A stretch of 64,000 nucleotides of DNA, taken from NCBI RefSeq assembly GCF_003390395.1, contig NZ_QUOV01000001.1, positions 1,984,001 to 2,048,000 of the forward strand. The letters are read 5' to 3'. Below the pieces are notes generated by a model. The model saw only the letters and a program-made list of their open reading frames with translations. It did no database searches and was not told the DNA's origin. Positions 34,183 to 43,732 of the stretch are shown piece after piece (within the stretch, counting starts at the first letter, position 1; every line of letters begins with the position of its first letter). The stretch comes from Thalassotalea euphylliae. GTDB lineage: Bacteria; Pseudomonadota; Gammaproteobacteria; Enterobacterales; Alteromonadaceae. The translations under genes and the position numbers were made by a program.

Positions 34183-36441
34183 TTATTCAGTTAGCGGTAT
34201 TTCGATATTAATTTGCACGCCATTAGGGTCAAAACAGTTTTGCGCACTGATTTGTCCCTGATGGTATTCGCAAATTAACCGAGCGATAAAAAGCCCAAGC
34301 CCCAAATGTGGCTGTGAATTTGGCGATGGTTTTGAATTTGACGATGGCTGTGATGATTGCAAACTAGATTCACTGTTTACTAAAGCTTCTTCCCTTAGCG
34401 ATACCATGGAATTAAACAAACGATTTTCCATCGTTTCTGGCAATAACTCACCATTGTTTTTCACCGTTAAAATCAGATTTTTCTTTACCGTGATCAGCAT
34501 TATTTCTACTTGTGCGTCACAGCTAAACTCAACGGCATTGGTCACTATTTTCTCTAACATTTGCGCGAAGTGTTCAGGCGAACCTAGCACATTTGCTTTT
34601 TGATTCGGGGCCTGAAAGTTAAAAGTCGTTTCAGGGTGAATTTGCTTAAAACCGCTTATACAACTGGCAATAACCTCATAGGCATTAAAGGATTGCTTTT
34701 CGGTACGTTGTAGCAGTTGTTCAACGCGTGTAGCTTCTGTCATGCTGGTAATAATGTGATTTAGCCTGTGCACGCCAGATTCTGCACGCTCAATATAGGC
34801 TTTGGCGTTTTCAGGAATAGGGTACATAGACAAGTTTTCTATTGAGGTTCGCACTACGGCAATGGGTGTGCGAAGCTCGTGTGATAAACGCGAAGATAAG
34901 TTTTCCAAATATTGATTGTATTGAGTTAATCGCGATACCGCCGTGGAAAAACTTCGTGATAGATCGCCAATTTCGTCATTACCTTTTAGTGCCGGTAGGT
35001 CTTCTTTCACTCGCCCGTGCTCGTCTATTGCCACTTCTGCGTGATTACGTAGCTGACGAATCCGATTAGAAATACGAGACGCAAAAAAGAAAAAACTAAT
35101 GGTACCAACCAGTAAAATGGCGAGAATTGACGTAAATAATTGCTCTAACGCTTTATTTCTCAGGGTTTTAATGCCATTTGTGGTTTCTTCAACAATCACG
35201 GCCCCTTGCACTTGTTCGTCTATATAAATAGGGTAGGCAGCAGAGAGGATCACCGCTTGTTTGTCGGTACTTAATCGCCATTGGCTATGTACTTCACCTG
35301 ATAACGCTTGCTCGATATGCTCGCCAGCTAAGTGACTTTCATCGTAAAGCTGGTCGTAAAAATCTTGCGTTGGTTTGGTCAGCACCTTGTAATAAAGCGG
35401 ATGTAACAGATTCGTTTGCAGCCAATGCCACCATGTTGGCCAAATGCCCGAGTTGGCATTAGTTGACGCGGTTGAGCGCCAAACACCACTTGCGCTATTA
35501 ATATCACCAGCGCTCGCCAGTACCCGTTGGTGTTTATCTATTACCCAAATACTGGACTGGGTATAGCTCATGCCTTTCACAATACGCTCTATTTCTGGCG
35601 AAGGAACGAGAATAGTGCCTAGTTGCTCAGGATCGGAGGTATTAGCCGAGCCGACTAAACTCGTTGCCTTACTGCTTGTCGCATCAACATCGGCAAAACT
35701 AAAACCTATTTTATTACCGACATAGTCAAGCGGTAGGCGCAGTTCAACGTTATAGCCTGTGTTATTTGGCTGCCATACCCCCTGAATATAGTTAATCGGC
35801 TGTGGGCGACTTGCTTGATTATCTAGCTGAAAAGACTCTATCCAGCCTGCATTTTTATTGCTGACAATATATTGCTGATGCTCACCATTAGGGGCGGTAA
35901 GACTCAGCGTTAAATGATCATTGAGATAAATCGACCGTGCATTGTTGCCTCGAAAAATAAGTTTATCGTCAACAACATTAAAAAATAGGTACAAGTACTT
36001 GTCGTATTTGCCGACGGCAGCATTAAAGCGAAGGCTAACAGCTTGATTGGGCTCTTGCCAGATAATGTTTGAGTCTTCGTAAAAGTGCGCCTTACCTTCA
36101 AAGTCAGGCCAGTCGTTGTAGCGACCATCTAATTGAATGGGCTGGCGAATTTGAAAGCCGTATAGATCTTTACCTTTTTCGACACTGGCTAAGAAAGACG
36201 CTTGGTTGTCGAACAGATTCGGGCGATCGTGCAGTGTTGTTGCTAGCGCCCTAGCTGTCCCAACAATAGTCTGTTCTTGACCATAGCGTAGGTATTTTTC
36301 CATCTCCCAAACATATTGATAGCCAAACCATGGAATGGTGAAGAGAAAACTAGAGAGGATCACTAACTTGGTTCTTAAGCCAATGCGGATAAAGCCTTTG
36401 TTGGCAGAAATAGTGTTTGCGCGGCTAGGCAATGTAATCAA
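34183..36441 (-). CDS. pdsS: Sortase-system sensor histidine kinase PdsS
   Basis: Membrane sensor kinase recognised as the proteobacterial dedicated sortase system kinase from architecture and neighbours. TM1 is about 24-44 and TM2 about 434-454. The periplasmic part starts with a CBM9-like beta-sandwich (about 100-245: LDGRYNDWPDF, YLYLFFNVVDDK, LNDHLTLSL). A HAMP follows, then HisKA with SHELRTP (His521) and an ATPase domain with KIVTNAVEF, VKNNGELLP and LGLGLFIARL. Between the last two boxes lies a low-complexity Ser/Gln/Pro/Asn insert. The start is TTG, 2 nt after the pdsR stop with GAGG upstream; no in-frame ATG occurs before the sensor. Confidence 0.85.
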   Translation of the reverse strand: MITLPSRANTISANKGFIRIGLRTKLVILSSFLFTIPWFGYQYVWEMEKYLRYGQEQTIVGTARALATTLHDRPNLFDNQASFLASVEKGKDLYGFQIRQPIQLDGRYNDWPDFEGKAHFYEDSNIIWQEPNQAVSLRFNAAVGKYDKYLYLFFNVVDDKLIFRGNNARSIYLNDHLTLSLTAPNGEHQQYIVSNKNAGWIESFQLDNQASRPQPINYIQGVWQPNNTGYNVELRLPLDYVGNKIGFSFADVDATSSKATSLVGSANTSDPEQLGTILVPSPEIERIVKGMSYTQSSIWVIDKHQRVLASAGDINSASGVWRSTASTNANSGIWPTWWHWLQTNLLHPLYYKVLTKPTQDFYDQLYDESHLAGEHIEQALSGEVHSQWRLSTDKQAVILSAAYPIYIDEQVQGAVIVEETTNGIKTLRNKALEQLFTSILAILLVGTISFFFFASRISNRIRQLRNHAEVAIDEHGRVKEDLPALKGNDEIGDLSRSFSTAVSRLTQYNQYLENLSSRLSHELRTPIAVVRTSIENLSMYPIPENAKAYIERAESGVHRLNHIITSMTEATRVEQLLQRTEKQSFNAYEVIASCISGFKQIHPETTFNFQAPNQKANVLGSPEHFAQMLEKIVTNAVEFSCDAQVEIMLITVKKNLILTVKNNGELLPETMENRLFNSMVSLREEALVNSESSLQSSQPSSNSKPSPNSQPHLGLGLFIARLICEYHQGQISAQNCFDPNGVQINIEIPLTE

Positions 36442-36443
36442 AA

Positions 36444-37169
36444 CTATGCCTCGTTGCTAACTGATGAGGCGTTTTGCTCTGCATCATTCCAGCGATAGCC
36501 CATACCATAGACGGTTTCGATACAGTTAAAGTTCGCTTGAATTTTACTGAATTTTTTACGAATACGTTTGATATGAGAAGTAATGGTGCTGTCATCAACA
36601 AAAATTTGCGAATCTTGCATAAGTTGCTGCCGGTTTTTCACATGCCCTGGCGATTTTGCCAGCGCAAACACCATCCAGAATTCGGTAACGGTAAGCTCTA
36701 CGTATTGGTTATGCCACTCAATTGTCATTTTTTGGCTGTCGATCACTAATGGCCCGCGTTCAATTAAGTTCTCTTGTTCTACTGGTTTATTCTGCGCATC
36801 TTGACGGCGAAAAAGTGCAGCAATACGAGCAGTTAAATGGGGTAGGCTTATGTCTTTGGTTAAGTAGTCGTCTGCCCCAATGCGCAGACCCGAAACAGTA
36901 TCGACATCATTGTCACGCGCGGTCAAAAAGATAATAGGTAACGTAGAAGACTTGGCTCTAAGCCATTGGCAAAGTTCAAAGCCTGCATCGTATTCGTCGT
37001 GCAATCCAATATCTAGAATCACTAAGTTAGGAAGGCGAACGGTAAAAGCTGCTTCTGCGCTTTGACGATTAGCAAAACTTTGCACTTGATACCCTTGATG
37101 GCGCAATACGTCGGCATAATTTTCACGAATGGCGTCGTCATCTTCTACTATTGCTATGCGTTTACTCAT
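36444..37169 (-). CDS. pdsR: Sortase-system response regulator PdsR (OmpR type)
   Basis: DNA-binding response regulator paired with PdsS. Receiver: VEDDDAIRENY (acidic pocket), VILDIGL (phospho-acceptor Asp near 54), LTARD and the switch lysine in YLTKD. The winged-helix output (about 135-230) includes LTVTEFWMVFAL and DDSTITSHIKRIRKKF, of the OmpR/PhoB family. It precedes pdsS with a 2-nt gap and is divergent from pdsO. The phased repeats in that divergent gap are the obvious candidate binding site. Confidence 0.88.
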   Translation of the reverse strand: MSKRIAIVEDDDAIRENYADVLRHQGYQVQSFANRQSAEAAFTVRLPNLVILDIGLHDEYDAGFELCQWLRAKSSTLPIIFLTARDNDVDTVSGLRIGADDYLTKDISLPHLTARIAALFRRQDAQNKPVEQENLIERGPLVIDSQKMTIEWHNQYVELTVTEFWMVFALAKSPGHVKNRQQLMQDSQIFVDDSTITSHIKRIRKKFSKIQANFNCIETVYGMGYRWNDAEQNASSVSNEA

Positions 37170-37270
37170 GTCGCTTACTTCATTTACTCGATTATCGATG
37201 GCTTTGAGCCGCTTTCTTAATGGCGTTCACTATATCCTAATTTATTGTCAGCTGGGCACTTTTGGCGAAA

Positions 37271-37339
37271 TTGCCAGAATGTTGCCACATTTGCTCGCTA
37301 ACTTGCCATTTTTGTCGCCCGATTTGGTCGCTTTTGCTG
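37271..37339. promoter_or_regulatory. Helically phased TTGCCA-type repeats upstream of pdsO
   Basis: Exact TTGCCA at 37271, 37282 and 37303, with related hexamers TTGCTC (37291), TTGTCG (37312), TTGGTC (37324) and TTGCTG (37334). Start-to-start steps are 11, 9, 12, 9, 12 and 10, averaging one DNA turn. A TAATAAT sequence follows at about 37345, 70 bp before the pdsO start. OmpR-family regulators bind direct repeats with such spacing, so this is a likely PdsR array (inference). Confidence 0.5.
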
Positions 37340-37413
37340 TGTTTAATAATCATCAAGTTCCCAAACAACTTATTTAAACAGAACATAAGACCAAAAGGTA
37401 AAAGGATAACAAG

Positions 37414-38181
37414 ATGAAAAAACTTATTTTAACGTCAGCAATCTTAACGAGCTTAGTATTAACACCTATGGCGCAAGCTGGTTCTCATGTTGAAGGCATA
37501 AGCGATAGCACTCTTACCGATGACACTTTTTCTGATGAGAGTAAAGAAGAACTAGGCTTCGGTGCTGGTGCGATTTTAGGTGGTATTTTCGGTGGTCCAG
37601 CGGGTGCGATGATCACAGGCCTTGCGGGTACCTTTTTAATGAAAACCCTCAATGGTGAAGAAGATATTGTTGAACTAACCAAAGCTAACAAAGCACAAGC
37701 GAAAAACTTCGAAATGCAGTTAGCGAGCCTTAAAAGCCAGATGCAAGACGCAGAATTTCAGCACCAACAAGAGCTGTTAGCGTTCGAGCAGTCGCAAGCA
37801 AAAGCCAGTGCTTTGCAGGCGAGTAATTTAATGATGAGCTTACAGTTCAATACAGGCTCAAGCGATATCCCAAGCTACTACGCTGAGCAAGTGAACGCGC
37901 TGGCTAGTATCCTCAACAGTAACCAAGACTTAACCATTGATTTGTCTGGTTACACTGACTTGCTCGGCAGTAGTAAACGCAACCAAGCATTATCGCTCGC
38001 TCGTGCGGAAAGCGTGAAAACCGCTTTAGTTAACCAAGGTGTTGGCGCGCATCGAATCAATACGACTGGCTATGGCGAGAATCACCCCGTAGTCGCCAAC
38101 GCCCAACAAGAATCTAGCTTTTATGATCGCCGTGTGATGATCAGCGTTCAGCAAAGTGATAAGCAAATGGCAAAAAACTAA
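37414..38181 (+). CDS. pdsO: Sortase-system OmpA-family protein PdsO
   Basis: Secreted envelope protein of unknown function, recognised as PdsO by its form and by its place beside pdsS-pdsR. A signal peptide of 22 residues ends AQA-GS. Residues 48-75 form a glycine zipper (GAGAILGGIFGGPAGAMITG, in part), followed by a helical coiled-coil-like stretch (about 88-135) and an OmpA_C peptidoglycan-binding domain (LQFNTGSSDIPSYY, LSGYTDLLGSSKRN, RAESVKTAL, GYGENHPV). AAAGGA precedes the ATG. In other marine proteobacteria the sortase and its single target usually lie nearby; neither is present here. Confidence 0.85.
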   Translation: MKKLILTSAILTSLVLTPMAQAGSHVEGISDSTLTDDTFSDESKEELGFGAGAILGGIFGGPAGAMITGLAGTFLMKTLNGEEDIVELTKANKAQAKNFEMQLASLKSQMQDAEFQHQQELLAFEQSQAKASALQASNLMMSLQFNTGSSDIPSYYAEQVNALASILNSNQDLTIDLSGYTDLLGSSKRNQALSLARAESVKTALVNQGVGAHRINTTGYGENHPVVANAQQESSFYDRRVMISVQQSDKQMAKN

Positions 38182-38198
38182 TAATGAACGGAACAATT

Positions 38199-38206
38199 AA
38201 GGAGGG
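38199..38206 (+). promoter_or_regulatory. Orphan strong Shine-Dalgarno after pdsO
   Basis: AAGGAGGG starts 18 nt after the pdsO stop, but no ATG, GTG or TTG follows in range and the next stretch is AT-rich with no gene. The pdsO terminator comes 69 bp later. This looks like the leftover ribosome site of a deleted downstream gene. Confidence 0.5.
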
Positions 38207-38274
38207 TTTACACACAAGAGATTTATAAAATTTCAGGATATAGCTAACTAAACTGTTTTAATCAAACAAAGTAA

Positions 38275-38308
38275 CCAGAGCACGAGTTGTTGTGCTCTGG
38301 TCTTTTTT
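38275..38308 (+). terminator. Intrinsic terminator downstream of pdsO
   Basis: Perfect 9-bp stem CCAGAGCAC / GTGCTCTGG with loop GAGTTGTT, then TCTTTTTT. It lies 94 bp after the pdsO stop. Confidence 0.92.
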
Positions 38309-38433: not shown

Positions 38434-38913
38434 ATGTTGCATAAGCGATTTATTATGGCAATGAGTTACAGCACAAATTCCATCGACATTTCACAGTTTC
38501 GCCAACATGGTATTGTCAATCTTGAAATTCCGTCTGAGCGAGTCGTTGTTTATCATGCGCACGGCCCATTTAACAAAGAGCTGGCTCAAGCCTTGGTAAA
38601 GTTAGAGCAGCAGGTATGCCCTGTGTTCAAAGCTAAATGGGGTTACTGGGCTGATCTATGTGTGTTTAGTGAATCTTGTTTAGTATTGGAAGAGGCGATT
38701 GAATATTATCAAGATTACTTAAAATCATTTAAAGCAGAAGGGTTGTCGCCTATTGCCTCTGCTTTTATCTATTCGCCAGAAGTAGAAGGTCGATCACTCG
38801 CCGAAAATATTTACCAGCAGCTATATCAGTTTGCAGGCGTTAAATACGCTGGCTTCTCTAATTTTGATGATGGGTTAAACTGGGTCAACAATGAGTTATT
38901 GCTCAAACAATAA
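38434..38913 (+). CDS. Conserved-looking protein of unknown function
   Basis: Not recognised. Up to 159 residues, mixed alpha/beta with no signal peptide or membrane span. The pattern VVYHAHGPFNKELAQALVKLEQ followed by WADLCVF and a C-terminal GFSNFDDGLNWVN (quoted in parts) recalls STAS-like single-domain proteins, but this is only an impression. ATGs at 38434, 38455 and 38461 are in frame; the first has a weak AGG upstream. It is convergent with dinG, and its stop codon sits inside a perfect 13-bp inverted repeat. Confidence 0.65.
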   Translation: MLHKRFIMAMSYSTNSIDISQFRQHGIVNLEIPSERVVVYHAHGPFNKELAQALVKLEQQVCPVFKAKWGYWADLCVFSESCLVLEEAIEYYQDYLKSFKAEGLSPIASAFIYSPEVEGRSLAENIYQQLYQFAGVKYAGFSNFDDGLNWVNNELLLKQ

Positions 38914-38929: not shown

Positions 38930-41068
38930 TTAATAACTGATCTGTCGCTTAAACGGTGGCAGGGCGTCAAGTAATTCACCACCGTAGCGCTTAGTCACCA
39001 CACGGCGATCAAGCAGGGTGATAACACCACTGTCTTTCTCATTTCGCAACAAGCGACCACAGGCTTGAATCAGCTTATTGGAAGCATCAGGTACGGTTAT
39101 CGACATAAACGGATTACCACCTTTGGCAGTCACATATTCTGCGTGCGCTTCTTCTACCGGTGAGGTCGGTACGGAAAACGGCAGTTTAGTGATCACTAAG
39201 TTAGTGAGGTAATTACTGGGTAAATCTAGCCCTTCAGAAAAGCTCTGGGTCCCAAACAAAATACTGGCTTTATTGTTGTCACATTTCTTTTTGTGATTCT
39301 CGATAATATAGCTTCTGGCTTGCTCTCCTTGCATTTGAAGAGAGATTTTATGTTTTTCACGCATCACTTTCGCTACTTGTTCCATTTGCCAATAAGAAGA
39401 AAACAGCACTAGTGTTGCTTCGTCTTTTTTAATTAATGCTGGTAGTAGCTTACAAAGCTCGTCCGTAAATGAAGGGTGACTTGGCTCATAGCGTACATTA
39501 GGTACAGACAGCACAGCGTTTTCACGGTAGTTAAATGGTGAATCGACTTTTTGATATTGTGTACCGTCGTTGTTGGAAAGGCCCACTTGACGGCGAAAAT
39601 GATCAAAAGAATTGAGTGCAACGATAGTGGCCGAGCAAAGTACTGCACCTGCGCATTTTGACCATAGCTTATCTTCCAGTGTGTAACCGACTTCAATAGG
39701 GGAAGCGGATAGCAAATAATCTTGCTTTTTACCGCTGAGTTTTTCTAACCAACGGGCTAGTGGTGCGGCTTTTTCGCTGTCGGTTTTTGCGTACATCACC
39801 CAAAGCGCATTAAAGTTTTCTAGGCGTTGAAGCAAAAAACCAAATTCTGATAACAAAGGCTCCGCTAAATAAGCCTTTACGTCACCATCTTTCACCGCTT
39901 CCACTAATAAGTAATAAAGTTTATTACCATGGGCTAAACATTTTCGGCTGTATTCGCTTAAATCTTCTGCACTGGTTTTAATCAGCTGTGGAATAATGCC
40001 GTGTTCAAAACGATAACTTGGCGTGCTATTGCCTTGAGAGTTGTTTTGCTCGGCATTAGCAAAGTAAGTCGCTTGGTTCGCTTCAACAAATTGCAGAATC
40101 TTTTGCATATCAGCAATTAACGATTGGCAATCATCGGCGAGTTTGAGCGATGGATTAATTGATGATTGTGATTTGATCAGCTTGGCAACTTTATCGCCTG
40201 TATCCGCGACTTTTTGTAGCCATTCCAACGAACCTTTTAAGGTGATAGCGGCACTCGAATGGTCACGCGTAACCTTAGGTAAGTGGTGCGCTTCGTCAAT
40301 CACGTAGTAGGTTTCATCAGGCTCTGGCAGAATTTTACCGCCGCCCATTTCTAAATCAGACAATAGTAGTGAATGGTTTATTACCAATACATCAGCTTTA
40401 TCCATGGTATCGCGCGCTTTGTGAAACGGGCAGTGGGTATGCTCGGCTAAGTGGCGCAAACAGCTATGTTTATCTGATTGAATGGCTTGCCACACATGAT
40501 TTGGAATAGGGTCTGCCCAACTGTCTCTATCACCTTGCCAGCGATTTTCACTGAGCGCACTGTTGAGTTCTTTAATTAGCTTGATATCAAAGCGGTTCGG
40601 TTGCTCAGCAAAGGTAAAACCAGGCTGTGGGTTTTCGCTGGCGTTAGCTGCGGCAGCCAGCTTATGACGACAAACGTAACGCTGGCGGCCTTTCGCTAAA
40701 GTAAAGTCAAAGTCTATACCGCCGTGATCTTTCAAAAAGGGCAAGTCTTTATTGACGAGCTGCTCTTGCAAGGCAACGGTCGCGGTCGAAATGACTACTT
40801 TTTTCTTTTTCGAAAGCGCTAACGGAATAGTACTTAAACTATAAGCTAATGACTTACCTGTGCCCGTACCTGCTTCAACGGCAATGATTTTGCGGGTTTT
40901 GTCGTACTCACCGGCCAGCGTTTTGGCTATTTCTGCAATCAAAAAAGTTTGCTGTTTGCGTGGGTTAAAGTTGGGTAGGCTTTCACCGATGGCTTTGTAG
41001 GAAGTGCGAATGGCTTGTTTAATATTATCGCTAAGCGCGCTGGTTTGCTTTTTGGTGGCGGTCGACAT
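38930..41068 (-). CDS. dinG: ATP-dependent DNA helicase DinG
   Basis: Superfamily 2 (XPD-like) 5'-3' helicase of the SOS response that resolves R-loops and D-loops. 712 residues: Walker A EAGTGTGKS (65-73), motif Ia region VISTATVALQEQL, DEAH box VIDEAHHLP (near 255), GTQSFSEGLDLP and QACGRLLRNEKD for motifs V-VI. The iron-sulfur region has Cys133, Cys203 and Cys213 but not the fourth cysteine present between the last two in E. coli DinG. The ATG lies 34 bp from a LexA box shared with polB. Confidence 0.93.
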   Translation of the reverse strand: MSTATKKQTSALSDNIKQAIRTSYKAIGESLPNFNPRKQQTFLIAEIAKTLAGEYDKTRKIIAVEAGTGTGKSLAYSLSTIPLALSKKKKVVISTATVALQEQLVNKDLPFLKDHGGIDFDFTLAKGRQRYVCRHKLAAAANASENPQPGFTFAEQPNRFDIKLIKELNSALSENRWQGDRDSWADPIPNHVWQAIQSDKHSCLRHLAEHTHCPFHKARDTMDKADVLVINHSLLLSDLEMGGGKILPEPDETYYVIDEAHHLPKVTRDHSSAAITLKGSLEWLQKVADTGDKVAKLIKSQSSINPSLKLADDCQSLIADMQKILQFVEANQATYFANAEQNNSQGNSTPSYRFEHGIIPQLIKTSAEDLSEYSRKCLAHGNKLYYLLVEAVKDGDVKAYLAEPLLSEFGFLLQRLENFNALWVMYAKTDSEKAAPLARWLEKLSGKKQDYLLSASPIEVGYTLEDKLWSKCAGAVLCSATIVALNSFDHFRRQVGLSNNDGTQYQKVDSPFNYRENAVLSVPNVRYEPSHPSFTDELCKLLPALIKKDEATLVLFSSYWQMEQVAKVMREKHKISLQMQGEQARSYIIENHKKKCDNNKASILFGTQSFSEGLDLPSNYLTNLVITKLPFSVPTSPVEEAHAEYVTAKGGNPFMSITVPDASNKLIQACGRLLRNEKDSGVITLLDRRVVTKRYGGELLDALPPFKRQISY

Positions 41069-41101
41069 TGGTTCCCATTCACAGGTATTTGTTTTAAACT
41101 G

Positions 41102-41117
41102 CTGTATATATTAACAG
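41102..41117. promoter_or_regulatory. LexA (SOS) box between dinG and polB
   Basis: CTGTATATATTAACAG fits the LexA consensus CTGT-N8-ACAG exactly and differs little from the E. coli consensus core. It is the only such site in the 75-bp divergent gap between two genes that are SOS-regulated in E. coli. Confidence 0.88.
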
Positions 41118-41143
41118 TTTGTGGTGGCATGTGGCGAGACTTA

Positions 41144-43732
41144 ATGGCCAACTTATCTGACAATTTTACCAGCAATGAGGTTCAGGCGAGTGGCGTCGGT
41201 ACTAACAACAGTGCTTTTGGCTTTGTGTTAACCCGAAAAACCTATGATACCCGCCACGGCATGGTCATTTCATTGTGGTTAGTTACAGAGCAAGGGCCAG
41301 TCAACCTCAAAATTACGGATGAATACGCACTGCTGTTTATCCATCAAACGGAGCAAGAAAAAGCACTTGAACTCCTTGCTAAACATCAACTGCAACCGGC
41401 CAAAGTAACACCGCTCCCCTTAAAAACCTTTGCTCAGCAGGCTGTAACCGGGATTTATTTTGCCAAGTTAAGAGATTTTTACCAAGCCAGAGAACTACTT
41501 AAACAGCACTACATTAAGTGTTTTGAAGACGATATTCGCCCCGAAGATCGCTACTTAATGGAGCGCTTTGTTACCGATAATTGTTATTTTACTGGCCAAA
41601 CAAGCAACTATACGCAAAATCATGCTCATCATTACCCAACCTTATATCAAGCCAAATGCAAGAAATCTGAGGGCGATATTAAGCTTTCTATGGTGTCGAT
41701 TGATCTGGAATGTAGCCCTAAAGGCGAGCTGTATTCGATAGGACTATACAGCGATACCTGTCAAAAAGTGATGATGATAGGCAAGCCTGAGCCACTTGAT
41801 GAAAGCTGCGATTATATTGAATGGCTTGCTAACGAGGCAGAGTTATTACAGCGATTTCTGGCTTGGGTAACAGAGTACGATCCTGATGTGTTTATTGGCT
41901 GGAATGTGGTTAATTTTGACTTTAGCTTGTTTCAAAAGCGCTACGACTTGCACAACATTCCTTTTGCGTTTGGCCGCGGTAACAGTGCGCCTAATTGGCG
42001 AAAACAGCGCAACAGCGAACAAAACTTTATGGATATCGAGGGGCGAGTCGTTATTGATGGTATTGATCTACTGAAAAGTGCCACTTATAACTTTGCTTCG
42101 TTCTCGCTCGACAATGTTGCTCATGAACTCTTGGGCAAGCGCAAACAGGTCAAAGATGTCGAAAATCGCCTGTACGAGATTGTCGATAATTTTCATCACA
42201 ATAAAAAGGCGTTAGCAGCCTACAATTTAGAAGATTGCCGTTTAGTCTGGCAGATATTTGAACATACCGACTTACTAGCTTTTGCCAAGCTTAGAGCCAA
42301 GTTAACAGGATTATCGCTTGATCGAATCGGCGGCTCGGTGGCTGCTTTTACCAATCTCTACTTACCTAAATTGCATCGTGCAGGCTATATCGCCCCGAAT
42401 TTAGGAGATGGAAAGTCTGATCTAGTTTCACCTGGTGGCTATGTAATGAACTCCATTCCCGGACTGTATCGCAATGTGCTTGTGCTAGATTTTAAAAGCC
42501 TATACCCAAGTATTATCCGCACCTTTTATATCGACCCTATGGGCCTTATCGAAGGACTAAGAGCTGAGGGGCTAAAGGCCGAAGGACTGAGAGCTGAAGG
42601 ATTAAAGGCTGAAGGTTTACAATCTGAAGAGCTTAGGGTTCAAGGCTTAGAAGCGGAAAATGGTAATTTAGGAGCGCAAAACCAAATCGTCCCTGGGTTT
42701 GATGATGCTTATTTTTCACGAGAAAGGCACTTTCTACCAGCCATTATTGATGAGCTTTGGGCAGCGCGAGACAAAGCCAAGCGCGATAAAAATGCCGCTT
42801 TATCGCAAGCGATTAAGATTATTATGAACTCGTTTTATGGTGTTTTGGGTTCGACTGGTTGTCGCTTTTTCGATCCTAGGTTGTCAGGATCTATTACCAA
42901 ACGTGGACACCAGATTTTAAAAACCACCAAACAGTGGATTGAAGATATTGGTTATCAAGTGATTTACGGCGATACCGATTCAATATTTGTCGCTATTGGC
43001 GAATCACACAATGTGAAGGAGTCAAGACGTATTGGTAAAGAGCTTGAGCAGCTAATTAATGAAAAATGGGATGAGCATATTGCTAGCGAGTACCAGATTG
43101 AAAGTAAGCTAGAAATCGAATTTGAAACCCATTTTTCTCGATTTTTTATGCCGACTATTCGTGGCCTAGCCGATGTTGGCACCAAAAAGCGTTATGCTGG
43201 CCTAGTGATCAATGAAGCTGATAAATCAAATAAAGATAACAGTAAGCCAAATGAACGTATGGTGTTTAAAGGGTTAGAAACCGTCCGCACCGATTGGACG
43301 CCACTGGCCAAAGATTTTCAACAAGCCTTGTACGATAAAATATTTCACGACGAGCCAGTCAGCGACTTTGTCCTTGATACCGTGAACCAAACCCGAGCAG
43401 GACAGCTTGATGAAAAGCTCATTTATCGAAAGCGTATTCGCCGCAAGCTAGATGACTACGTAAAAAATGTGCCGCCCCATATTAAAGCAGCACGAGCCGC
43501 TGACGCTATAAATCTTGCCAATGGTCAAAAAGCCAAATACCAAAAGCGCGGCCATATTGAATATGTGCTAACCACCCAAGGCCCACAAGCGATAGAGCAC
43601 CAAAGTGCGCCACTTGACTACGATTTATATATAGAACGCCAGTTAAAAGCAGTTGCCGATGCTATTTTACCTTTTGTGGACTTATCGTTTGAGCAGATCA
43701 CTGATAATCAGTTGGATTTGTTTTCATCATAA
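41144..43732 (+). CDS. polB: DNA polymerase II with repeat-derived insert
   Basis: Family B translesion/repair polymerase of the SOS response with 3'-5' proofreading. It aligns with E. coli Pol II from GFVLTRKTYDT to the end. Exonuclease motifs: SIDLECSPKGELYSIGL, NVVNFDFS, YNLEDCRL. Polymerase motifs: A DFKSLYPSI (449-457), B KIIMNSFYGVLG, C YGDTDS (608-613). The 862 residues exceed the usual 783, partly through an insert at about 470-520 made of AEGL repeats. ATG 41144 is given because it lies past the LexA box with GGCGAG upstream; ATG 41129 and 41015 are alternatives, the last overlapping dinG. Confidence 0.93.
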   Translation: MANLSDNFTSNEVQASGVGTNNSAFGFVLTRKTYDTRHGMVISLWLVTEQGPVNLKITDEYALLFIHQTEQEKALELLAKHQLQPAKVTPLPLKTFAQQAVTGIYFAKLRDFYQARELLKQHYIKCFEDDIRPEDRYLMERFVTDNCYFTGQTSNYTQNHAHHYPTLYQAKCKKSEGDIKLSMVSIDLECSPKGELYSIGLYSDTCQKVMMIGKPEPLDESCDYIEWLANEAELLQRFLAWVTEYDPDVFIGWNVVNFDFSLFQKRYDLHNIPFAFGRGNSAPNWRKQRNSEQNFMDIEGRVVIDGIDLLKSATYNFASFSLDNVAHELLGKRKQVKDVENRLYEIVDNFHHNKKALAAYNLEDCRLVWQIFEHTDLLAFAKLRAKLTGLSLDRIGGSVAAFTNLYLPKLHRAGYIAPNLGDGKSDLVSPGGYVMNSIPGLYRNVLVLDFKSLYPSIIRTFYIDPMGLIEGLRAEGLKAEGLRAEGLKAEGLQSEELRVQGLEAENGNLGAQNQIVPGFDDAYFSRERHFLPAIIDELWAARDKAKRDKNAALSQAIKIIMNSFYGVLGSTGCRFFDPRLSGSITKRGHQILKTTKQWIEDIGYQVIYGDTDSIFVAIGESHNVKESRRIGKELEQLINEKWDEHIASEYQIESKLEIEFETHFSRFFMPTIRGLADVGTKKRYAGLVINEADKSNKDNSKPNERMVFKGLETVRTDWTPLAKDFQQALYDKIFHDEPVSDFVLDTVNQTRAGQLDEKLIYRKRIRRKLDDYVKNVPPHIKAARAADAINLANGQKAKYQKRGHIEYVLTTQGPQAIEHQSAPLDYDLYIERQLKAVADAILPFVDLSFEQITDNQLDLFSS
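42551..42655 (+). repeat. Seven in-frame 15-bp units inside polB
   Basis: Units of the form GAAGGACTAAGAGCT at 15-bp steps code E-G-L-(R/K)-A five-residue repeats, diverging toward the 3' end. They sit just after motif A, where E. coli Pol II has a linker about 35 residues shorter. All changes keep frame. Confidence 0.9.

What the first reader, a model, noticed from the sequence alone, without database searches (positions are those of the whole stretch)
34183..38308. Pds regulatory cluster without its sortase or sorted target
pdsS, pdsR and pdsO are intact and in the usual divergent order, but the class of sortase and its single cognate target that normally accompany them are missing; pdsO is followed by a terminator and an unrelated gene. 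Either the enzyme and substrate moved elsewhere, or the two-component system and PdsO have been kept for a job independent of sorting. Retention of intact signalling genes would hint at such a role.
Basis: partly seen in the sequence, partly recalled or inferred. Interest (0 to 1): 0.75.

Follow-up and report, generated by a model that had tools for sequence, protein, structure and literature searches.

The report
Split sortase regulon sharing one promoter
The sortase and its target that seem to be missing next to these regulatory genes are intact about 1.2 million bases away in the same genome and carry a matching promoter signature, so this looks like one control system whose genes sit in two places, not an abandoned regulator.

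Summary
The local observation is right: pdsS, pdsR and pdsO are intact and divergent, pdsO ends in a terminator-like hairpin, and no sortase or target lies beside them. The "missing" reading is wrong for this genome. One sortase (TIGR03784) and one target (TIGR03788), adjacent and both over cut-off, lie 1.16 Mb away with catalytic residues and sorting signal intact.

A 25-bp direct-repeat box, modelled on pdsO promoters of 39 genera, lies at 37267-37291 and upstream of the distant target (21.2 bits). Of 86 family genomes with Pds genes (118 searched), 26 carry pdsO and sortase together, 30 are split, and 27 have PdsS but no sortase or target. Split targets carry the box in 26 of 29 cases, linked targets in 0 of 26. 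Box, second repeat and -10-like element keep the same spacing at both promoters. So this is a split regulon, usual for its clade, most likely run by PdsR through the box (inferred; no binding or expression data).

The parts
34183..36441 (-). pdsS, sensor histidine kinase (752 aa): long helix, CBM9-like and Cache-like sensor region, long helix, HAMP-like region, HisKA (SHELRTP, H521), HATPase
   Evidence: TIGR03785 925.2 bits; HisKA and HATPase_c over cut-off, HAMP just below; CBM9_1 18.2 and Cache_WalK 17.7 bits here, both below gathering, but found at E <= 0.01 in 25 and 30 of 51 homologues; model
36444..37169 (-). pdsR, OmpR/PhoB-type response regulator (241 aa)
   Evidence: TIGR03787 396.8 bits; Response_reg and Trans_reg_C
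37267..37291 (+). PdsR-type box: two TTGCCA half-sites 11 bp apart (GAAATTGCCAGAATGTTGCCACATT)
   Evidence: 30.5 bits, next best in the window 11.1; no mismatch to TTGCCA-N5-TTGCCA
37299..37323 (+). second, weaker repeat unit 32 bp downstream (TAACTTGCCATTTTTGTCGCCCGAT)
   Evidence: 6.9 bits; same offset in the consensus of pdsO and of split-target promoters
37341..37349 (+). -10-like element GTTTAATAA (AAT core 78-80 bases from the box start)
   Evidence: consensus gTTTAATa in pdsO promoters and G.Tt.AATa in split-target promoters, AAT in the same columns; promoter role inferred
37414..38181 (+). pdsO, OmpA-like protein (255 aa), signal-peptide-like start by eye
   Evidence: TIGR03789 196.8 bits; OmpA domain PF00691
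38274..38308 (+). intrinsic terminator-like hairpin and T run after pdsO
   Evidence: 12 pairs, 6 G-C, loop of 4, tail CTTTTTTAAT

Best explanation
This is one half of a complete Pds (dedicated sortase) regulon whose genes lie at two chromosomal addresses. PdsS senses a signal in the periplasm, perhaps glycan-like (guessed from CBM9-like and Cache-like regions), and phosphorylates PdsR. PdsR binds a direct-repeat box (TTGCCA-N5-TTGCCA plus a second repeat 32 bp on) and activates promoters that have a conserved -10-like element but no conserved -35. In this genome the two boxed promoters are the pdsR-pdsO gap and the one before the target-sortase pair at C1:860-863 kb. The sortase then cuts the target at its MPQTS signal and fixes it to an unknown acceptor. 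Shown: gene identities, intactness, split arrangement, box at both loci, shared promoter geometry across relatives. Inferred: that PdsR is the protein that binds the box, activation rather than repression, the signal, and the sorting reaction.
For: One TIGR03784 match (168 bits, cut-off 158.25) at C1:862366-862854 and one TIGR03788 match (641.8, cut-off 551.65) at C1:860120-862255, adjacent on one strand. One PdsO and one PdsS over cut-off in the genome. Own sortase H150, C207, R234 fall in columns where 44-46 of 46 rows have the same residue; the target ends MPQTS, hydrophobic stretch, basic tail. The box model, fitted on pdsO promoters, gives over 8 bits in 75 of 82. Before targets it gives at least 11 bits in 26 of 29 split genomes, each above its own 40 shuffles, against 0 of 26 linked, maximum 5.8. 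Own target site 21.2 bits, best of 40 shuffles 5.1. Outside the modelled 25 bp the two promoter consensuses agree at 28 of 29 shared positions in register, at most 14 when slid 1-12 bp. In G031 pdsSR and pdsO are apart and both keep a box. The best site of the locus lies in the pdsR-pdsO gap in 77 of 80 named loci, including 14 of 15 Shewanella and 6 of 6 Photobacterium.
Against: No binding or expression data. I noticed the TTGCCA seed by eye in both the window and the own target's upstream region before fitting the model on pdsO promoters, so the own target is not a blind test; the relatives are. A 21.2-bit site is expected 0.4-1.6 times by chance per genome. In 10 of 49 target regions at least one of 40 shuffles reached 11 bits, up to 16.7, so the weaker split sites are not each secure. 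Three of 29 split targets lack the box (G012, G048, G100), as do G024 (no pdsO match) and G032. Five of 82 pdsO promoters lack it (G012, G020, G035, G052, G087). The own target's -10-like core reads ACT, not AAT. Another two-component pair lies upstream of the own target. Box and pdsR are neighbours, so conservation alone does not prove that PdsR is the binder.
Confidence: 0.86

Rival explanations
1. The target-sortase pair is present but has escaped PdsR and is run by another regulator, for instance the two-component pair encoded upstream of it (L003 3229-5548); PdsSR now serves pdsO alone.
For: A response-regulator ORF and a histidine-kinase ORF lie about 1.3 kb upstream of the target on the same strand, with two reverse-strand ORFs between (identity by eye for the regulator, and the kinase also rings). 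The own target's -10-like core is one base off the relatives'.
Against: The PdsR-type box lies in the gap directly upstream of the target at 21.2 bits with the conserved geometry. Among 31 loci compared over about 4 kb each side, no upstream gene cluster is shared by more than two genera.
Confidence: 0.09
2. The box is bound by a different, widespread regulator and not by PdsR; the shared promoter still ties pdsO and target together.
For: Binding by PdsR is inferred from adjacency and the direct-repeat form only.
Against: A place with at most 1 mismatch to the box pattern occurs in 77 of 86 PdsS genomes but in 9 of 32 without PdsS; the reversed pattern hits 25 of 118. The two zero-mismatch hits in PdsS-less genomes lie inside a coding frame that looks like a motility stator. 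The box stays beside pdsR when pdsO has moved (G031).
Confidence: 0.1
3. One reading: PdsSR-PdsO kept in this genome only for a job unrelated to sorting.
For: 27 of 86 PdsS genomes in the family sample show no sortase and no target, so PdsSRO can apparently stand alone.
Against: This genome has both, intact and boxed; all four sampled members of its genus are split, none orphan.
Confidence: 0.04

Closest known systems
Proteobacterial dedicated sortase (Pds) system, NCBIfam TIGR03784/03785/03787/03788/03789
   Same: All five proteins are present and over curated cut-off; sortase, target, PdsS and PdsO each once over cut-off (PdsR copies were not counted genome-wide). Target and sortase are adjacent, as PMC3237569 (passages read) says of TIGR03784 and its LPXTG protein.
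   Different: Regulators plus PdsO lie 1.16 Mb from target plus sortase. Both promoters carry a box for which I found no description in the held library (searches returned no paper; one search returned one, PMC6637203, seen as a listing only).
PEP-CTERM/exosortase regulation by PrsK-PrsR (PMC1569441, passages read)
   Same: A protein-sorting system whose scattered target genes are tied to a histidine kinase and response regulator by a shared upstream DNA motif.
   Different: There the motif is coupled to a sigma-54 promoter and many targets; here a direct repeat with a sigma-70-like -10 and a single target.
PhoB/OmpR-type response-regulator boxes (recalled, from no call)
   Same: Tandem direct repeats about 11 bp apart, repeated upstream of a -10 without a good -35.
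   Different: Half-site sequence (TTGCCA) and the two-promoter regulon.

Membership tests
Pds system | PdsS-type histidine kinase over TIGR03785 cut-off (612.2) | tested here: met
   925.2 bits
Pds system | PdsR-type response regulator over TIGR03787 cut-off (335.7) | tested here: met
   396.8 bits
Pds system | PdsO over TIGR03789 cut-off (152.2) | tested here: met
   196.8 bits; single copy over cut-off
Pds system | Dedicated sortase over TIGR03784 cut-off (158.25) with intact His/Cys/Arg | tested here: met
   168 bits, C1:862366-862854; H150, C207, R234
Pds system | Single target over TIGR03788 cut-off (551.65), adjacent to sortase, with LPXT-like C-terminal signal | tested here: met
   641.8 bits, one match; MPQTS, hydrophobic stretch, basic tail
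Pds system | All genes in one cluster (found in 26 of the 86 family genomes with Pds genes, so not strictly defining) | tested here: not met
   Sortase 1.16 Mb from pdsO
Pds system | Sortase acts on the target | not testable with these tools
   needs biochemistry
Shared PdsR regulon | Box at both loci | tested here: met
   30.5 and 21.2 bits
Shared PdsR regulon | PdsR binds the box | not testable with these tools
   inferred from adjacency and conservation
CBM9-like sensor | Sensor region matches CBM9_1 over the Pfam gathering score | tested here: not met
   18.2 bits against 23.4 in this protein; 25 of 51 homologues match at E <= 0.01, best 1.6e-7
CBM9-like sensor | Structural match of the sensor region to a solved CBM9 | tested here: inconclusive
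   Full-length search filled mainly by kinase regions; sensor alone folded poorly, pLDDT 35, not searched

The most novel reading that the evidence does not exclude
PdsSR-PdsO is the stable core, an autonomous envelope-sensing two-component regulon. The target-sortase pair is an optional, movable two-gene output that carries its own PdsR box, sits among different neighbours in most genera, and has been lost repeatedly while PdsR control of pdsO persisted. The sortase would then be the accessory and PdsO the primary effector, reversing how the system is named.
Probability: 0.5. Interest if true: 0.6.

Novelty: new member of a known kind. Interest (0 to 1): 0.42.

Why it matters
It turns an apparent oddity into a testable rule: a specific DNA box predicts the regulon of a Gram-negative sortase system about which I found little in the held library. 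The one mutant result I saw is an S. oneidensis srtA deletion without effect on current (PMC8176591, passages read; I did not check that this srtA is the TIGR03784 gene). Split genomes act as natural promoter swaps: the box stands before the target when the target is not downstream of pdsO. It also separates this genome (ordinary split) from relatives in which the regulator seems to have outlived its sortase, where PdsO's own role could be studied without sorting.

Tried and rejected
Reading the locus as an orphan regulator in this genome: rejected.

A wider PdsR regulon here: the own-genome pattern scan found 240 places against 135 for the reversed pattern and listed only some of them, mostly forward ones. 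Of the 30 fetched and scored, one besides pdsO beats the target (23.1 bits, C1:2207748), but it lies inside a listed ORF and such a score is expected 0.2-0.5 times by chance. I claim no third member; the scan was not exhaustive.

Zero-mismatch boxes in two PdsS-less genomes of one genus (G017, G063) lie inside a frame that looks like a motility stator and were set aside as chance. A box before a gene that looks like ddl (by eye) in both sampled members of one genus (G029, G073; 24.9 and 23.6 bits) was not followed further.

A substitute gene beside pdsO in orphan genomes: none is shared by most of them; the commonest, an ABC-transporter-like gene, is in 8 orphan, 3 split and 2 linked loci of the 56 compared.

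Sensor fold: the full-length structural search returned mainly kinase matches. The sensor alone, folded without an alignment, was useless (pLDDT 35). No CBM9 chain was listed, which excludes nothing.

Error corrected: I took the genome-search loci as turned to the match, so minus-strand ones were read on the wrong strand; redid this. In one search only 17 of 26 linked targets were held, three of them (G033, G053, G078) with a match starting inside the gene; one search repeats the control on all 26. PdsR was recovered for 59 of 82 rows of the tree, so 23 rows rest on PdsO alone; the method was 'quick' and the root is a midpoint.

Labels (linked, split, orphan) come from hits typed, at E limits 1e-35 (PdsO), 1e-15 (sortase), 1e-90 (PdsS), 1e-60 (target); weaker relatives would be missed. 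G032 and G076 (target, no sortase) and G057 (sortase, no target) have the hit within 0.4 kb of a contig end and are probably cut. Some of the 18 'different contig' splits could be near each other. Two of 27 orphans are under 90% complete (G073, G092), and three have no PdsO match (G068, G073, G080), two of these with PdsS near a contig end.
Full report
WHAT IS THERE. The window is C1:1984001-2048000 of a 4.36-Mb single-contig genome. The closest PdsS listed is from Thalassotalea euphylliae at 94% identity, so the organism is most likely a Thalassotalea. pdsS, pdsR and pdsO are intact, in the stated order and over the curated NCBIfam cut-offs. A terminator-like hairpin follows pdsO, and the next gene has no Pfam or NCBIfam match.

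WHERE THE SORTASE AND TARGET ARE. The genome has one TIGR03784 match at C1:862366-862854 and one TIGR03788 match at C1:860120-862255, both over cut-off and adjacent on one strand. The sortase keeps the near-invariant His, Cys and Arg. The target ends in MPQTS, a hydrophobic stretch and a basic tail. There is one PdsS and one PdsO over cut-off. So the system is complete and split by 1.16 Mb.

HOW COMMON THE SPLIT IS. In 118 genomes drawn from the family I found PdsS in 86, PdsO in 82, sortase in 57 and target in 58. Sorted by place (86 genomes have any of the four): 26 with pdsO and sortase within 10 kb, 30 split (12 on one contig, 18 on different contigs), 27 with PdsS but no sortase and no target, 2 with target but no sortase, 1 with PdsS, target and sortase but no pdsO match. 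All 57 sortase genomes have PdsS. The window's genus is split in 4 of 4. On a PdsR+PdsO tree (quick method, 23 of 82 rows without PdsR, midpoint root) 25 of the 30 split genomes fall on one side of a starred branch, in 36 rows with 8 orphans, 2 linked and 1 other. Nine of 56 pdsO loci (six genera; 7 split, 2 orphan) share a downstream helicase (cluster c4) that reads like the DinG-type gene at 38930-41068 here; I matched that one by eye. The target-sortase pair has other neighbours: in 31 loci compared over about 4 kb each side, no flanking gene cluster is shared by more than 4 genera.

THE BOX. Upstream regions of pdsO share a 25-bp element, majority sequence GCAATTGCCATTTTTTTGCCACATT: two TTGCCA-like half-sites 11 bp apart. 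I first saw the repeat by eye, then fitted the model on pdsO promoters, one site per genus, 39 genera. It scores over 8 bits in 75 of 82. Two more (G007, G082) have a zero-mismatch pattern hit just beyond the stretch scanned; five lack it. In the window the site at 37267-37291 scores 30.5, next best 11.1. In 80 named loci the best site of the locus lies in the pdsR-pdsO gap in 77, at 15 bits or more in 70. Some of these overlap the training genomes, but Shewanella (14 of 15) and Photobacterium (6 of 6) belong to other families (recalled). The other three are one short contig and two loci whose best, weak site lies elsewhere.

Scanned with that model, the 700 bp before the target's match gave at least 11 bits in 26 of 29 split genomes and at least 15 in 18; one further split genome (G057) has no target match. 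In all 26 linked genomes the pdsO-target interval gave at most 5.8. Each of the 26 sites exceeds its own 40 shuffles, but in 10 of all 49 regions at least one shuffle reached 11 bits, up to 16.7. Fisher P for 26 of 29 against 0 of the 17 linked first held is 6.5e-10; related genomes are not independent, so this is only a guide. The own target scores 21.2; forty shuffles of that region reach 5.1 at most. Under Markov models such a score is expected 0.4-1.6 times per genome on both strands. The split failures are G012, G048 and G100; G024 and G032 also lack a site, and G076 has one (21.4).

SHARED GEOMETRY. Lined up on the box, the pdsO promoters (39 genera) and 27 target promoters (26 split plus G076, of 30 tried) show the same second repeat 32 bp after the first and a -10-like element whose AAT core falls in the same columns, 78-80 bases from the box start. 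Outside the modelled 25 bp the consensuses agree at 28 of 29 shared positions, against at most 14 when slid by 1-12 bp. No -35 consensus is apparent, which fits activation by a bound regulator (inference). The own target reads ACT where most relatives have AAT.

A THREE-WAY SPLIT.

REGULATOR WITHOUT SORTASE. The 27 orphan genomes include six on one contig (G006, G013, G022, G068, G082, G114); two are under 90% complete (G073, G092). All 24 with a pdsO match keep a box: 22 over 15 bits, G082 by pattern, and G011, whose 27.6-bit site lies before a gene inserted between pdsR and pdsO, with a weaker one before pdsO. Orphan status needs 15 changes on the tree, at least 7 forced by starred branches. 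Of the 80 named loci, 44 showed no sortase in the stretch; I submitted 27 of these, 26 could be searched, and 12 have a sortase elsewhere while 14 have none, including 4 of 6 Photobacterium. Many of these are drafts. No replacement gene is shared beside pdsO by most orphans.

SENSOR. Twenty-five of 51 PdsS homologues match CBM9_1 and 30 match Cache_WalK at E <= 0.01. In this protein both are below the gathering score. The model shows a beta-rich region between two long helices, with residue blocks 101-270 at pLDDT 77-93, then a second mixed region to 420. A glycan or peptidoglycan signal is a guess from this.

LITERATURE. Four searches for the system's names returned no paper; one returned a single transcriptome paper, PMC6637203, seen only as a listing; broader searches gave listings. 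[quoted passage not shown] PMC1569441 (passages) describes an analogous motif-plus-two-component link for PEP-CTERM. PMC8176591 (passages) reports that S. oneidensis srtA was down twofold with riboflavin and that its deletion did not change current.

VERDICT. An ordinary, clade-typical split of a known system, with good evidence that one promoter box unites the two halves. The more interesting result is that the regulator, mostly with PdsO, is found without sortase or target in 27 of 86 PdsS genomes.

Noticed in passing
window 41015-43732 (+), DNA polymerase II-like ORF (by eye): The protein holds a tandem in-frame repeat (AEGLKAEGLRAEGLKAEGLQSEEL...) inside the polymerase; looks like a repeat expansion or insertion.
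   Followed up: no
L003 3229-5548 (C1 about 856-858.5 kb): A second response-regulator and histidine-kinase ORF pair lies about 1.3 kb upstream of the relocated target on the same strand.
   Followed up: partly
L199 about 5429 and L198 about 5495 (G029, G073): A PdsR-type box (24.9 and 23.6 bits) lies just upstream of a D-Ala-D-Ala ligase-like gene (by eye) in both sampled members of one genus; possible extra regulon member.
   Followed up: partly
L202 and L203 (G011, G094): Genes inserted between pdsR and pdsO in this orphan genus; a box lies before the inserted genes and a weaker one before pdsO.
   Followed up: partly
window 38434-38913 (+): 159-aa ORF after pdsO with no Pfam or NCBIfam match and no relative among the sampled downstream neighbours of pdsO.
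   Followed up: partly
pdsO promoters of G012, G020, G035, G052, G087: No recognisable box; G012 lacks it at both its split loci, as if PdsR specificity had drifted there.
   Followed up: no
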